The position numbers and the translations under genes were made by a program. The notes under the pieces were generated by a model, which searched no databases, was not told where the DNA came from, and worked only from the letters and a program-made list of their open reading frames with translations. From Candidatus Brocadia pituitae (GTDB lineage Bacteria; Planctomycetota; Brocadiia; Brocadiales; Brocadiaceae): a DNA stretch of 64,000 bases. How positions within the stretch are numbered: position 1 is the first letter of the stretch; the number at the start of each line of letters is the position of its first letter. The stretch lies in the NCBI GenBank assembly GCA_017347445.1, contig AP021856.1:1062613-1126612 (forward strand). The letters run 5' to 3'. Below are positions 25,284 through 63,803 of this stretch, in pieces.

Positions 25284-25290
25284 ATTACCG

Positions 25291-26265
25291 GATAGGTCAC
25301 GGGCATTTCTGCCCGATTCCCTCCTAAGAACTGTACGTGATAGTTTCCCATCATACAGCTCAAGCATTTCAATAAGCTGCCCTTGTGGGACAACCCGACT
25401 GTTTTACCTCAAAGCTATCATTGCCTGATATTGGCGATGTGATAGCGCACCAAGCAGACATGCTTCCTTAATGTTTTTCCTTCCTTTACAGCCTTTGCGA
25501 TACGCATTTGCAGTCTTCTGACAGGACGCTTTACAGCATCCCAACTCATGGTATGCCATTTTATTGCGTCACCGGCAGGGGCACCAGGAGAAACTCCCGT
25601 CATTTGCGTTCCTGCCTCCGATGATTCTTCAAATTCTCTCGCAATGAAACACCTGTTGGAAGTGGGCACTCCATTCGGAATCGAGAAATTTGAATCTCGA
25701 ACTTTTAGAGTTGAGTCATGTTTCATACTCTATTCACTCCATTACAAAGTGACCTTTGCTTTTTCCAACCTCTCAATACCGCCCCTTCTTCAGTCTGCCT
25801 CACGGTTGACCTGTCATACATTTCATATGGCGAAGTGACAGCATTCCCCCGTTCTGCATAATTGACCAGTGAATAACTTAGGTGGTGGCTACCTGAACAC
25901 CGGCAGTACTACGATTCCGTACAGGCACGTTAGCGACCTGTATCTTGACTACCCACACAAACACTGGGAAGTGTGTCTTTGACCTGTTAATCCCGGTAGG
26001 TCTGTTGCTCGCTTGACGGTGCGTCTACAGTACTTTGTCTAATCTCACCGTATATCCAGACCCTAGCCCTTAACCAGACGGGATTTCCGGATGGGTTTTC
26101 ACCTCACGGTTTCTACCCCTTTCGGTACATTGTCGAGAGGGCTCCACACCCCATCATCTGCGCAATGGTAGCATGCCTCTCTAGGGTACTGATGGGAATA
26201 CATCAGGTATAACCAAGAAGATAACTCCTTGTTATACAATCAATTATGCAACCTCGGGTCGCAAC
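25291..26265 (-). mobile_element. Group II intron (class C-like), RT mostly deleted
   Basis: Domain V is plain at 25361-25328: 34 nucleotides with the AGC triad, GAGCTGTATG paired to CGTACAGTTC around a GAAA loop. Domain VI follows with a CGGGC/GCCCG stem and the branch-point A in GTGACC. About 530 bases upstream of the truncated reverse transcriptase are the right size for domains I-III. The 5' end (near 26265, GTTGCGACC) lies exactly in the attC at 26262-26320, which is the target preference of class C-attC introns. The boundaries are estimates. The ribozyme may still fold, but it cannot move without a helper protein. Confidence 0.75.
25418..25726 (-). pseudogene. N-terminal stub of a group II intron reverse transcriptase
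   Basis: 102 codons. Residues 44-85 (GVSPGAPAGDAIKWHTMSWD, then AVKRPVRRLQMRIAKAVKEG) match the N-terminal RT0 region of intron-encoded proteins, which normally run beyond 400 residues. The match stops abruptly after AVKEGK; the remainder is unrelated and ends in a stop before domain V. Nearly the whole polymerase, maturase and endonuclease part is missing. Confidence 0.75.
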
Positions 26266-60541: not shown

Positions 60542-60603
60542 TCAATTACCTTGTGTCTCAGTGTTTCTGAGATCATGTTGTCAAACAAATGTCGGAGAAC
60601 AAA

Positions 60604-61593
60604 ATGAGGATAAAGATAACCCTCTCAGCAGAGAAGTCCGGCATCATCGACTTCAATTACCAGCACCAGATACAGGCCGTCATTTATGGTTTTTTGTATC
60701 GATCGAACCCTGACTATGCCCAGTGGCTTCACCAGCAGGGTTTTGTTTACAAAAAAGACAAGCGGTTCAAGCTCTTTGTCTTTTCGGGTATCATATTCAA
60801 CGGCAAGATCAAAAGCATCAGTTCAAACCGTTCAAACGGCCTAAACAACTTAAACCGTTCAAACCGTTTAAACAGCTTAAACGGTTTAAACGGCTCAAAC
60901 GGCTTGAGCGGCTTCTCTTTCAGCGGCTCTAAAAACTCCCCCTTCACCTTCTCCTTTCAGATCGCATCGCCGGTTGATCAATTCATTCAACATCTGATAG
61001 ACGGCATATTCCGTGAAGGGAATGAAATAACACTGGGGCGGCAGCAGGTAATCATTGATCGCGTAGAAACCCTCCCGGATCCTTTAAACGGCTCAAACGA
61101 CTCAAACAGCTCAAACAGTTCAAACAGCTTGAACAGCTTGAACAGCTTGAACGGCTTAAACGGCTTCAACGGTTTAAGCGGCTTGAACTGTTCATTATTA
61201 AAACCCTTAGAATCCCCCATCTTCATCAAAAAACCTATGCCTGCAGGGCAACGGGATATCTACTTATTTCCGGGTGATGCGGGTTATGAAGAACTCCTCA
61301 ATCAAAACCTCTTGCACAAGTTCGAAACCCTTTACGGCAAGCCCTTTGAAGGCGAACCGGTAAAATTCAATTTTCAGCCTGAGCAACTTGAGCGGTTTGA
61401 ACGGCTTAAACCGCTTAAACCTAAGGTAGTTAAATCCTTCAAAATCTTTAAAAACGGAAAGATAACCGGCGAAATAAAAGGCACACTACATCCCTTTACA
61501 GTAACAGGCCCAAACAAATTAATCAGGATTGGCCTGGAATGTGGCTTTGGGCAAAATAACAGCATGGGATGCGGATATGTAGAAGTCATTTAA
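60604..61593 (+). CDS. cas6: Cas6 crRNA endoribonuclease with repeat-encoded insertions
   Basis: 329 residues from the ATG at 60604 (GGAG seven bases upstream; the ATG five codons earlier is less well placed). The N-terminal ferredoxin-like fold (MRIKITLSAEKSG, then YQHQIQAVIYGFLYRSN) and the glycine-rich C-terminal ECGFGQNNSMGCGYVEV identify Cas6, which cuts CRISPR transcripts. Typical relatives have about 250 residues. The surplus is two Ser/Gly/Arg-Leu/Ser-Asn triplet tracts (residues about 73-102 and 160-195) encoded by 9-bp DNA repeats. A third repeat tract (about 261-273) is read in another frame as QLERFERLKPLKP. All fall where loops are expected, so the enzyme may still fold. Confidence 0.88.
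   Translation: MRIKITLSAEKSGIIDFNYQHQIQAVIYGFLYRSNPDYAQWLHQQGFVYKKDKRFKLFVFSGIIFNGKIKSISSNRSNGLNNLNRSNRLNSLNGLNGSNGLSGFSFSGSKNSPFTFSFQIASPVDQFIQHLIDGIFREGNEITLGRQQVIIDRVETLPDPLNGSNDSNSSNSSNSLNSLNSLNGLNGFNGLSGLNCSLLKPLESPIFIKKPMPAGQRDIYLFPGDAGYEELLNQNLLHKFETLYGKPFEGEPVKFNFQPEQLERFERLKPLKPKVVKSFKIFKNGKITGEIKGTLHPFTVTGPNKLIRIGLECGFGQNNSMGCGYVEVI
60820..60909 (+). repeat. 9-bp tandem array 1, inside cas6
   Basis: Ten units in exact 9-base register, for example CGTTCAAAC, AGCTTAAAC, GGTTTAAAC and GGCTCAAAC. Each encodes a three-residue unit ending in Asn (the last in Ser). Confidence 0.92.
61081..61188 (+). repeat. 9-bp tandem array 2, inside cas6
   Basis: Twelve units in exact register and in the same codon phase as array 1. 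Three identical AGCTTGAAC units in a row suggest recent slippage or unequal exchange. Confidence 0.92.
61385..61420 (+). repeat. 9-bp tandem array 3, inside cas6, other codon phase
   Basis: Four units (AACTTGAGC, GGTTTGAAC, GGCTTAAAC, CGCTTAAAC) shifted by one base against the codons, so the protein reads Leu-Glu-Arg/Leu-Lys-Pro type triplets. Confidence 0.85.
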
Positions 61594-61643
61594 GCGGGAT
61601 TCCCCTCTATCAAGAGAAGCGAGGGGTATAAGGGTTGACTTTG

Positions 61644-61745
61644 GAAAGAATCATAGCATTTTAGGGCAAGATATCGAATGTAGAACAAGGAATATTGAAT
61701 TTCGAAAGGTAAAAACTTAATAATTCGACATTTTTTGTTCGATAT
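61644..61745 (+). repeat. Dispersed 100-base repeat, copy B
   Basis: Counterpart of 39658-39757 in the same orientation, with matching blocks GAATATTGAATTTCGAA and ATAATTCGA. It lies just downstream of cas6. Confidence 0.7.
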
Positions 61746-61835
61746 TCGATATTTAATTACATTCAAATTGAATTAACTTCTTAAGTTAACGCCTATGGGG
61801 GTTAGGGATGTGCTACAGGATGTTTTTGCAGATGA

Positions 61836-61915
61836 TGCCCGAAGGGCAGAAAGAGCATAGCCAGGGGTGAAGCCCCTGGAAAAAAACATATTACAAGACA
61901 TAGCCCCAAAGGGGC
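61836..61915. repeat. REP-like cluster of three short hairpins
   Basis: TGCCC-GAA-GGGCA (61836-61848), CCAGGGG-TGAAG-CCCCTGG (61861-61879) and GCCCC-AAA-GGGGC (61903-61915). This triple arrangement, with ACATATTACAAGACAT between the second and third, resembles mobile intergenic repeats of many environmental bacteria. Confidence 0.65.
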
Positions 61916-61977
61916 GAAAGGAAAAGGGAATTCGTGTGGCTGGTACATGCATGTATTGTTAATGACACGAGGTAGTT

Positions 61978-62193
61978 ATGAGACTGGATAAAGGACAGAT
62001 TGAAGTAGTGGACGATAAGGTTGCAGAAATACTCCGGAAAAAGACGGGTCAGGAGCGTTTAGAAATGGTATGGGACTCCTGGAATTTTTTTTATCGGGTG
62101 GTTGTGGCTTCCTTAAAGAATAGCCATCCTGAATGGACGCAGGAACAGATTCAAAAAGAGATAGCAAGACGGGTATTGTATGGAACAAAGTGA
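61978..62193 (+). CDS. Small protein, likely partner of the nucleotidyltransferase
   Basis: 71 residues, helical, with MVWDSWNFFYRVVVASLKNS and WTQEQIQKEIARRVLYG. Small proteins of this kind regularly sit directly upstream of nucleotidyltransferase-fold genes as in toxin-antitoxin-like pairs. It overlaps the next start by 14 bases, so the two are coupled. It lies within the cas operon, after cas6. Confidence 0.72.
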   Translation: MRLDKGQIEVVDDKVAEILRKKTGQERLEMVWDSWNFFYRVVVASLKNSHPEWTQEQIQKEIARRVLYGTK

Positions 62194-62743
62194 ACTCATG
62201 AGATTAATGGTACAGGCATTAGCATCCCTGGAAATACCGTATATGATTACCGGTTCCATGGCATCGGCATACTATGGCGAACCTCGTTTTACCAGAGACA
62301 TTGATGTCGTCGCTGAATTGAAAGAAGATCAGGTTGACGAGTTTGTAAAATTTTTCCCGGAGGATCAATTCTATTGCGATAAAGATATGATAAAGACAGA
62401 GATAAAAAGACGCGGTCAATTTAATATTATTCATTCCATTTCAGGATTAAAAATAGACATTATCTTAACAAAAGAAACTCCTTTTTCTAAAACTGAATTT
62501 TCCAGGAGAAAAAGAGAGCCCCTCTTTTCAGATACAGAAGCGCACTTTGCTGCACCAGAGGATGTGATCATCAAAAAGATGGATTTCTACAGGCAGGGCG
62601 GTTCTGAAAAACACCTCCGGGACATTACTGGCATCCTCAAGATATCGGGCGACATCATAGACATGGATTACATTACCCAATGGGCAGATAGATTAGGCCT
62701 TCATGAAATCTGGGATGCGGTAGTAAAACGGGTAAAGGAGTGA
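62180..62743 (+). CDS. Nucleotidyltransferase-fold protein (possible toxin)
   Basis: 187 residues. The motif TGSMASAYYGEPRFTRDIDVV (the GS...DID nucleotidyltransferase core) lies at about 21-41, with a third acidic residue likely in LKIDIILTKE. This matches the DUF6036-like/AbiEii-related group, some of which act as toxins or defence proteins by transferring nucleotides. It overlaps the small gene upstream. The position between cas6 and cas8 suggests insertion of a module into the cas operon. Confidence 0.8.
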   Translation: MEQSELMRLMVQALASLEIPYMITGSMASAYYGEPRFTRDIDVVAELKEDQVDEFVKFFPEDQFYCDKDMIKTEIKRRGQFNIIHSISGLKIDIILTKETPFSKTEFSRRKREPLFSDTEAHFAAPEDVIIKKMDFYRQGGSEKHLRDITGILKISGDIIDMDYITQWADRLGLHEIWDAVVKRVKE

Positions 62744-62823
62744 TAGTTTCGCCACGAATGAACCCGAATAGGCACGAATAGAGCTGTAGGGACAGGGTTA
62801 GAACAGGGATGAGCACAGGAGGA

Positions 62824-62849
62824 CAGGATAAAATATCCCGTTTATCCTG
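62824..62849. repeat. Short inverted repeat CAGGATAAA/TTTATCCTG
   Basis: CAGGATAAA (62824-62832) and TTTATCCTG (62841-62849), with an eight-base loop. One of the common intergenic CAGGAT-type repeats, related in style to the ACAGATT repeat at 7841. Confidence 0.5.
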
Positions 62850-62957
62850 CACATCCATGTTCGAAAAGATCGCTGAAATAAAATACCCTTTCATGTAATT
62901 CAAAGTATGTTTTTGTATAGGGAATATTTACACAAAAGGTAACAGGAAAGGCTTTAT

Positions 62958-63140
62958 TGATAAAGGAGAATCTCCCAATCATCCAGATTGTCGGCTTACC
63001 TGGCGCCGGGACACCACTCTGGGAAAAAGATTATCAAAGAAGTTGAATTTGCCGATATTAGGATTGATACAACAAAGTTCACCCAGGATGAAGTCTGTAA
63101 AACGATTATGAGAAAATTAAAGTTGTATACACTCAAATAA
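62958..63140 (+). pseudogene. Dead P-loop kinase fragment
   Basis: Three overlapping pieces in three frames: IQIVGLPGAGT, then TTLGKRLSKKLNLPILGL, then DTTKFTQDEVCKTIMRKLKLYTLK ending at a TAA. Together they look like a small nucleotide-kinase or AAA-type P-loop protein with the Walker lysine region out of frame. At least two shifts are needed, so it is not functional. Confidence 0.55.
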
Positions 63141-63150
63141 TTTTATTCAC

Positions 63151-63228
63151 GGTTTGAACCGTTTGAACTGTTTCCCAGGCATAAACTGCTTGAACTGCTT
63201 GAACGGTTTAAACGGCTTAAACGGTTTA
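63151..63228 (+). repeat. 9-bp tandem array 4, intergenic
   Basis: Six clear units (GGTTTGAAC, CGTTTGAAC, TGCTTGAAC twice, GGTTTAAAC, GGCTTAAAC), interrupted by a degenerate stretch at 63169-63186. It lies directly between the dead kinase and the four-helix-bundle gene. Confidence 0.88.
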
Positions 63229-63244
63229 TTATAAGGAGCCAACC

Positions 63245-63688
63245 ATGTACTTTGAAGATCTTGAAGTCTGGAAATTAGCAAGAGGATTGACGAATAAGAT
63301 TTACAAGATCACATCTACCGGCGCATTTTCAAAAGATTATGGACTAAGAGACCAAATCCGCCGTGCCTCTGTTTCAGTCATGTCAAACATATCTGAAGGA
63401 CACGAACGAGGAGGCAATCAGGAGTTCATTCAATTTTTATCAATTGCAAAAGGGTCAAGTGGAGAAGTGCGCAGTCAGATATACGTTGCTTCTGATCAAG
63501 GCTATATTGATCAGAATGAAAGTGAGCGATTACTTGATGACTTTAAAAAACTGTCAATTATGATAAACAACTTCATGGCTCACCTGAAAGGGAGCCGGTA
63601 CAAAGGCTCAAAGTACAAAATGCCAGAGCGAAAGAGTACGAAAGAAACATTAGATGAAATAATGAAGAAGATAAATAAGAAAGATTAA
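63245..63688 (+). CDS. Four-helix bundle protein (23S rRNA IVP family)
   Basis: 147 residues. The opening FEDLEVWKLARGLTNKIYKI, then LRDQIRRASVSVMSNISEGHERG and FIQFLSIAKGSSGEVRSQIYVA, match the four-helix-bundle family first seen in 23S rRNA intervening sequences. Function is unknown, but such genes often travel between other loci. The last 30 residues are Lys/Ser-rich. AAGGAG precedes the ATG by seven bases. It is bracketed by 9-bp repeat arrays 4 and 5. Confidence 0.9.
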   Translation: MYFEDLEVWKLARGLTNKIYKITSTGAFSKDYGLRDQIRRASVSVMSNISEGHERGGNQEFIQFLSIAKGSSGEVRSQIYVASDQGYIDQNESERLLDDFKKLSIMINNFMAHLKGSRYKGSKYKMPERKSTKETLDEIMKKINKKD

Positions 63689-63708
63689 TTCGTTCAATTA
63701 GTTTAACC

Positions 63709-63780
63709 CGTTTAAACGGCTTAAACAGTTTGAACAGTTTGAACCGCTTTTTCGGCTTGAACGGTTTAAACGGCTTGAAC
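63709..63780 (+). repeat. 9-bp tandem array 5, intergenic
   Basis: Eight units (CGTTTAAAC, GGCTTAAAC, AGTTTGAAC twice, CGCTTTTTC, GGCTTGAAC, GGTTTAAAC, GGCTTGAAC), with weaker copies upstream from 63691. It ends 24 bases before a short cas8-like start. Confidence 0.9.
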
Positions 63781-63803
63781 CATTATTTTTACCGGAGGTA
63801 CTC

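What the first reader, a model, noticed from the sequence alone, without database searches (positions are those of the whole stretch)
60820..63780. Five arrays of a 9-bp unit cluster around cas6, three inside the gene
Units of consensus RGYTTRAAC occur in exact 9-base register as arrays of 10, 12, 4, 6 and 8 copies within 3 kb: three in cas6 and two on either side of the four-helix-bundle gene. None was seen elsewhere in the 64 kb. Because the period is three codons they can expand in a gene without shifting its frame. This may be a mobile or self-expanding repeat that colonises cas loci, or a binding site for a protein. Units contain near-palindromes such as GTTTAAAC.
Basis: seen in the sequence. 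Interest (0 to 1): 0.82.

Follow-up and report, generated by a model that had tools for sequence, protein, structure and literature searches.

The report
Nine-base repeat in cas6 and riboswitches
A nine-letter DNA repeat of ammonium-oxidising (anammox) bacteria varies in copy number in places where a genome tolerates extra letters, such as gaps between genes, floppy loops of the CRISPR enzyme Cas6 and the tips of riboswitch hairpins, and it is strikingly concentrated in CRISPR-cas operons.

Summary
The five arrays are real and part of a larger pattern. The unit is an 8-bp degenerate palindrome plus one spacer base (GYTYRARC+N), here mostly GYTYRAACV. The single-contig 4.08-Mb genome holds 22 arrays of three or more units. 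Seven lie in the type I-B cas operon. By a slightly different threshold 13 lie in c-di-GMP-I riboswitches, 3 in cobalamin riboswitches, 1 beside a tRNA. Counting the own genome, 36 of 59 genomes have arrays. In 11 genomes 38 of 114 arrays lie within 15 kb of cas6 (1.1 expected). Most Cas6 orthologues carry arrays at one or both of the same two loops, in one codon phase, with varying unit numbers; the predicted structure is disordered there. Other arrays mostly avoid genes and often begin near a stop codon, also in a broad genome scan. Riboswitch arrays mostly fold into one long hairpin; cas6 arrays show no such ordering. The four-helix-bundle gene is not the driver: 5 of 37 loci are flanked. 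Best reading: a short dispersed satellite of the STRR/TAACTGA kind growing in tolerant sites. How one unit reached so many sites, why four of its positions hardly vary, and why cas operons are favoured, stay unexplained.

The parts
60821..60910 (+). Array 1: 10 units inside cas6 (Cas6 loop 1); reads (S/G/R)(L/S)N
61082..61189 (+). Array 2: 12 units inside cas6 (Cas6 loop 2)
61377..61421 (+). Array 3: 4 good units (5 with a degenerate first) inside cas6, in another reading frame (LERFERLKPLKP)
63152..63223 (+). Array 4: 2 + 5 units, upstream of the four-helix-bundle gene
63683..63781 (+). Array 5: up to 11 units, several degenerate, between the four-helix-bundle gene and the gene called cas8 by position
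60589..61593 (+). cas6 (conserved start at 60604)
   Evidence: Pfam PF01881/PF21350, NCBIfam TIGR01877; fold match to solved Cas6
63245..63688 (+). four-helix-bundle (23S_rRNA_IVP, PF05635) gene flanked by arrays 4 and 5
   Evidence: same arrangement in relatives

Best explanation
The arrays are copies of one short dispersed satellite: a 9-bp unit (degenerate 8-bp palindrome GYTYRARC plus a free spacer base) that gains and loses units, most likely by slipped-strand or hairpin-assisted copying, and survives where extra bases are tolerated. Those places are gaps between genes, often beginning right at a stop codon, apical loops of structured RNAs (where the arrays mostly form an extended hairpin), and disordered loops of Cas6 (where three-codon steps and a stop-free frame keep the gene open). 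The cas operon is the main reservoir in Brocadiaceae. SHOWN: positions, shared unit, orthologous Cas6 sites with different unit numbers, avoidance of ORFs, hairpin folding in riboswitches, cas enrichment. INFERRED: slippage as the cause of copy-number change, absence of a function, and whatever carried the unit between sites.
For: Similar unit profile in coding and non-coding arrays. Cas6 arrays at the same two loops in the same codon phase with different unit numbers (array 1: 10, 10, 10, 4, 4; array 2: 12, 12, 11, 9, 9, 7, 5, 5, 5, 3, among 18 sequences), absent in both homologues of the more distant G039. The Cas6 model has pLDDT below 50 and no helix or strand in the segments 75-99, 163-205 and 261-273 that hold the arrays, while the core matches solved Cas6 (5yi6, E 3e-12). 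Arrays avoid ORFs: 14 of 64 inside versus 78% of random placements in 20 Brocadiales regions, 43 of 64 in same-direction gene gaps versus 13%; 21 of those 43 begin no later than 30 bp past the stop codon, 10 of them overlapping the gene's end. In the broad scan (114 stretches, mostly other phyla) 13 of 62 arrays (random 81%) and 30 of 71 (random 87%) are in ORFs, for GC below and above 55%. Thirteen arrays lie in c-di-GMP-I and three in cobalamin riboswitches; 12 of 13 folds have negative z, 9 of 13 at or below -2.4. Other c-di-GMP-I apical loops carry 0, 1 or 2 units or unrelated inserts, so that loop tolerates insertions.
Against: Slippage within a site does not explain the same unit at dozens of sites and in several phyla. 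Positions 1, 3, 6 and 8 keep one base in 85-98% of units while 2, 4, 5 and 7 vary mostly by transitions, in coding and non-coding arrays alike (the detection rule builds in part of this); neutral drift should touch all positions. The 34-fold cas enrichment is more than tolerance alone predicts. No polymorphism within a strain was examined. The ordering test for hairpins in riboswitches is modest (mean z -0.96 for 12 arrays, 4 of 12 at p<=0.1), and one riboswitch (L041) does not fold as a hairpin (z 0.97).
Confidence: 0.55

Rival explanations
1. Functional intercistronic RNA element: arrays between genes form hairpins or a protein-binding track that tunes translation or mRNA stability of the neighbouring gene, comparable to what was proposed for TAACTGA repeats; the copies in Cas6 and riboswitches are by-products.
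For: 43 of 64 Brocadiales arrays lie in same-direction gene gaps; 21 of 43 begin no later than 30 bp past a stop and 14 of 43 end within 30 bp before (or just past) a start; arrays sit at several junctions of one operon (cas, prophage); riboswitch arrays fold as hairpins.
Against: Arrays outside riboswitches are little or not ordered to fold better than permuted units (mean z -0.03 for 16 cas6 arrays, 0.01 for 19 in relatives' cas gaps, -0.32 for 5 in own cas gaps, -0.15 for 107 of the broad scan; only the 12 prophage-region arrays reach -0.67); the arrays flanking the four-helix-bundle gene differ in size between genomes; cas6 loops and the tRNA leader are not intercistronic.
Confidence: 0.2
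2. Tandem operator: each GYTYRARC palindrome binds a dimeric protein (nucleoid protein or regulator), which explains why the palindrome positions are constrained.
For: Positions 1, 3, 6, 8 at 85-98% one base and mostly transitions at 2, 4, 5, 7 in all four contexts counted.
Against: Sites lie near stops, inside a gene and inside riboswitch hairpins, with no common gene set evident among those seen; 9-bp spacing does not match the DNA helical repeat (recalled); I did not search for a candidate protein.
Confidence: 0.12
3. Mobile element carried by the four-helix-bundle gene that it flanks.
For: Array-4HB-array near cas6 in the own genome and in G003, G004, G018, G020, G022, G024, G026 and, in another family, G041 and G055; G002.
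Against: Only 5 of 37 PF05635 loci examined (one best match in each of 29 genomes plus the own genome's 8) have arrays beside them, and those five are near cas6 (places); array and 4HB counts correlate weakly (rho 0.30, p 0.022 over 59 genomes; 0.16, p 0.36 in the family); only 1 of 114 stretches of the broad scan has a 4HB gene by my own profile, which itself found 6 of the 8 own-genome loci.
Confidence: 0.04
4. Selected Cas6 insertions: the Asn-rich loops serve Cas6.
For: Loops kept in frame in the aligned orthologues.
Against: G009, G013 and the second Cas6 group (G015b, G026b, first G022 copy) lack arrays in these loops; unit profile is similar in non-coding DNA; loops predicted disordered.
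Confidence: 0.05
5. Assembly artefact.
For: None found.
Against: Present in 36 of 59 genomes, own included, among them one whose contig length equals a 419x SMRT-closed genome.
Confidence: 0.01

Closest known systems
TAACTGA heptamer direct repeats of Beggiatoaceae, cyanobacteria and Bacteroidetes (PMC4679880; abstract and two sections read)
   Same: Short tandem direct repeats dispersed at many loci, mostly between genes and near gene boundaries, a minority inside ORFs at tolerated places, patchy spread over distant phyla, mechanism unknown.
   Different: 7-bp unit with stops in all three forward frames; mostly just upstream of start codons. A riboswitch or cas link was not mentioned in the parts I read.
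Heptanucleotide (STRR-type) repeats of cyanobacteria, e.g. the P6b stem-loop of the Nostoc tRNA-Leu intron (PMC4476775, passages seen; the name STRR and the rnpB case are recalled)
   Same: Repeat units build the variable apical stem of a structured RNA and change its length by whole units.
   Different: 7-nt motifs of other sequence, in a group I intron; here 9 nt, in c-di-GMP-I and cobalamin riboswitches, and also in coding DNA.
Tandem repeats of Borg elements (PMC9879509; passages seen)
   Same: In-frame repeats create disordered segments; also present between genes.
   Different: Borg repeats arise independently at each locus and are near-perfect; here one degenerate unit is shared by the sites.
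REP palindromes (PMC3733652; only title and start of abstract seen in a listing)
   Same: Palindromic and extragenic.
   Different: No GTAG/CGTC tag and no single 20-40 bp palindrome; tandem 9-bp units instead.

Membership tests
Short tandemly repeated repetitive sequences / long simple sequence repeats (kind) | Direct tandem repeats of 5-11 nt longer than chance allows | tested here: met
   40 matches vs 0.02 expected in the window; 164 vs 0 control genome-wide; definition from the introduction of PMC4679880
Short tandemly repeated repetitive sequences / long simple sequence repeats (kind) | Same unit dispersed at many loci, mainly outside genes | tested here: met
TAACTGA repeats | Unit TAACTGA | tested here: not met
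   unit is GYTYRAACV
REP/BIME | 20-40 bp palindrome with GTAG or CGTC tag | tested here: not met
   units shown lack both tags; definition from the listing of PMC3733652
REP/BIME | Partner RAYT transposase (recalled) | not tested
   not searched
CRISPR array | Repeats separated by unique spacers | tested here: not met
   units abut with one spacer base; the CRISPR repeat here is a different 29-mer, 53 copies in the stretch searched
Borg-type aaTR | Unit length in ORFs divisible by three | tested here: met
   9 bp
Borg-type aaTR | Independent, near-perfect unit at each locus | tested here: not met
   one degenerate unit shared across loci
Cas6 | Cas6 sequence and fold | tested here: met

The most novel reading that the evidence does not exclude
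The 9-bp palindromic unit is a self-propagating satellite that spreads by a dedicated, possibly RNA- or hairpin-templated, process into the loops of structured RNAs and the junctions of mobile operons, with CRISPR-cas operons as its preferred home; the hardly varying positions 1, 3, 6 and 8 would be the recognition code of the copying machinery.
Probability: 0.15. Interest if true: 0.82.

Novelty: new variant of a known kind. Interest (0 to 1): 0.55.

Why it matters
It joins three things usually seen apart (tandem repeats growing in riboswitch hairpins, in a CRISPR enzyme and in operon gaps) in one repeat whose copies can be compared across 36 genomes. That makes the old question of how short bacterial repeats spread and stay uniform testable, and warns that length changes in Cas6 loops and riboswitch apical stems of anammox bacteria may come from a repeat and not from selection on the protein or RNA core. 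The cas enrichment asks whether defence operons attract or merely tolerate such repeats.

Tried and rejected
Four-helix-bundle gene as carrier: 5 of 37 loci flanked, those five near cas6 (with 17, 70); rejected as driver, though the flanked gene beside cas6 recurs in several genomes. Intra-unit palindrome correction (C2 with G7): C2 in 64 but G7 in only 11 of 122 cas6 units, which speaks against it. CRISPR repeat as source: 29-mer CTTTCATTGAACCTATAAGGAATTGAAAC; by eye it shares little beyond TTGAAC. Phages as vectors: 55 IMG/VR stretches match, but 92 of 109 arrays there are inside ORFs (random 76%), so they look like ordinary coding repeats; no support, although one relative's prophage operon is full of arrays. 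Riboswitch habit as a general rule: 18 of the 114 stretches of the broad scan gave no Rfam match (one of the 18 is a Scalindua and one another planctomycete); the other 96 were not searched. The broad-scan set I treated as 'other phyla' also holds a few anammox and other planctomycete stretches, and 34 of its 114 members are not named in the listing. One array I first counted as a c-di-GMP-I case (genome 3049273) does not overlap the Rfam hit in its locus and only resembles the 5' half by eye; it is left out of the thirteen. Cas6 protein selection as cause of the unit pattern: similar profile in non-coding arrays. Literature: nine searches of the PMC open library showed no title or abstract start describing this repeat in anammox bacteria; each listing shows only the top rows. 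PMC5854607 counts 260 short tandem repeats in K. stuttgartiensis without describing them in the passages and section I read.
Full report
What is there. The window's end carries five arrays of a 9-bp unit, three in cas6 and two around a PF05635 four-helix-bundle gene. The window is G000:C1:1062613-1126612 of a single 4,075,302-bp contig. In one orientation the unit is GYTYRAACV; over the contexts counted it is the 8-bp degenerate palindrome GYTYRARC plus a free ninth base. Read as VGY-TYR-AAC it has no stop codon, which is how arrays 1 and 2 are read in Cas6; array 3 uses another open frame.

Where else in the genome. The three-unit pattern with up to 3 mismatches has 90+74 matches and the reversed control none. 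Merged at up to 1 mismatch there are 22 arrays, 7 within 15 kb of cas6. Two of these lie downstream of the window, between cas4 and cas1 and between cas1 and cas2 (gene names). A CRISPR array follows, with 53 repeats in the stretch searched. NCBIfam names Cas7/Csh2, Cas5 (type I-B model just below its cut-off, general Cas5 model above), Cas3, Cas4, Cas1b and Cas2, a type I-B system; the 664-aa gene I call cas8 has no family match and is named by position only. Outside the cas operon, Rfam places 13 arrays in c-di-GMP-I riboswitches and 3 in three of four neighbouring cobalamin riboswitches (against positions); one more lies 10 bp upstream of a tRNA (L049). One array (3049273) only resembles a riboswitch half by eye. 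The genome has 45 c-di-GMP-I hits, 44 over the cut-off; of the 38 whose sequence I read, 14 carry three or more units by my reading, others 1-2 units, no insert, or unrelated inserts (7 not read).

Relatives. With at most one mismatch, arrays occur in 36 of 59 genomes and 12 of 22 genera, the own genome included. Cas6 matches were found in 18 of 59, again including the own. The family is Brocadiaceae as far as contig lengths tell: G020 equals K. stuttgartiensis MBR1 (4,406,153 bp; PMC5854607, section read), and a 54,559-bp contig of G012 equals a record titled Candidatus Brocadiaceae. Among 18 Cas6 sequences aligned, ten carry arrays after the segment FxGPIKII and/or after ETLPDPL, all in the same codon phase, with 3 to 12 units; eight have none by that scan: both homologues of the more distant G039, G001, G009, G013, and the second group (G015b, G026b, first G022 copy). 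G001 has only two short runs. Not in that alignment: a partial G011 gene with a short array, and the frameshifted G003 gene with an 18-unit array. G009 lacks arrays in Cas6 but has two beside its four-helix-bundle gene.

Cas enrichment. In 11 genomes with this cas6 (own included), 38 of 114 arrays lie within 15 kb of it, 1.1 expected; without the own genome 31 of 92, 0.94 expected; 10 of 11 genomes have at least one and G001 none. Arrays of one locus are not independent, so the binomial p there is only indicative, and loci that share descent are not either. Family genomes with this cas6 have more pattern matches than those without (4 to 70 against 0 to 11), which is partly circular because the cas locus holds many of them, and phylogeny and completeness were not removed. 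All 7 arrays of G020 are in the cas locus.

Other homes in relatives. G015 has arrays at successive junctions, and inside some ORFs, of a prophage structural operon with terminase, portal, scaffold and tape-measure matches. G015 and G022 have arrays between TadE and TadG-like genes (the G022 genes recognised by near-identical sequence starts); G041 has 24 units between nuoH and a nuoI-like gene. c-di-GMP-I riboswitches of G018 (two) and G003 (two, one overlapping only partly) and cobalamin riboswitches of G015 and G022 (two each, one of them with 2 units) also carry arrays.

Position rule. In 20 Brocadiales regions 14 of 64 arrays are inside ORFs (random 78%), 43 are in same-direction gaps (random 13%); 21 of the 43 begin no later than 30 bp past the stop (10 of them overlap the gene's end, by up to 33 bp) and 14 end within 30 bp of the next start, the rest lie farther away, up to several hundred bp. 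In the own genome 6 of 25 are in ORFs (random 71%). For the broad scan the figures are 13 of 62 (random 81%) and 30 of 71 (random 87%). These regions were chosen because they hold arrays and the ORF caller is simple, but the random placements share both limits. Viral contigs do not show it (92 of 109, random 76%).

Spread. Some genomes appear repeatedly; high-GC single hits may be ordinary coding repeats. Nine deltaproteobacterial or unlisted loci that I looked at show two facing arrays about 55-120 bp apart.

RNA and protein effects. Folding the 13 array-bearing c-di-GMP-I riboswitches, 12 have negative z and 9 are at or below -2.4; two have stems of about 20 bp; L041 does not fold so. Riboswitch arrays fold better than their own permuted units (mean z -0.96, 4 of 12 at p<=0.1), prophage-region arrays somewhat (-0.67, 12 arrays), own cas gaps slightly (-0.32, 5), cas6 arrays (-0.03, 16), relatives' cas gaps (0.01, 19) and the broad scan (-0.15, 107) hardly or not. 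So the hairpin order belongs mainly to the RNA setting. The AlphaFold model of Cas6 is of middling quality (pLDDT 61, pTM 0.54); the array segments are among its least certain and have no helix or strand. Its core matches solved Cas6 proteins of about 240 residues.

Unit constraint. In 122 Cas6 units, 60 riboswitch units, 38 own intergenic units and 62 prophage-region units, positions 1, 3, 6 and 8 hold one base in 85-98% of units, and 2, 4, 5, 7 vary mostly by transitions. The detection rule itself favours such units and treats those transitions as matches, so part of this is built in, though it admitted up to two departures per unit. Because coding and non-coding units agree, the constraint or copying bias, if real, is on DNA or RNA and not on Cas6.

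Verdict. The pattern is a new variant of a known kind, short dispersed tandem repeats, with an unusual set of habitats and an unexplained concentration in cas operons. Slippage could explain copy-number change; it does not explain dispersal, fixity or cas preference.

Noticed in passing
L096, L097, L102 (Cas6 loop 1 of G001, G009, G003): The same Cas6 loop carries a different in-frame insert there (segments like SPRLAKEG / SPFLTNEG), so this loop may be a general insertion hotspot.
   Followed up: no
own genome 837198-837344 and 1832125-1832237: c-di-GMP-I apical loops with unrelated repeat-like inserts (cagtgtacagtgccagttgacag; gttgagagtcgagagt).
   Followed up: no
L122, L129, L145, L162, L169, L175, L186, L204, L125: Loci, mostly deltaproteobacterial by title, with facing array pairs about 55-120 bp apart, shaped like a long hairpin element.
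   Followed up: partly
L364 5769-5984: 24-unit array between nuoH and a nuoI-like gene in G041.
   Followed up: partly
window 61978-62743: Small Rv0078B-like antitoxin (below the Pfam cut-off) and AbiEii-like nucleotidyltransferase pair between cas6 and the four-helix-bundle gene; a 57% relative of the second lies in the G004 cas locus.
   Followed up: partly
window 25287-26207: Group II intron pieces (Rfam RF02012, RF00029).
   Followed up: no
own genome: 45 c-di-GMP-I riboswitch hits in one genome, and 20 to 56 in each of the ten other same-genus genomes.
   Followed up: no
L363: cas6, cas4, cas1 and the four-helix-bundle gene of G003 appear split by frameshifts, possibly long-read errors; cas6 there holds an 18-unit array.
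   Followed up: no
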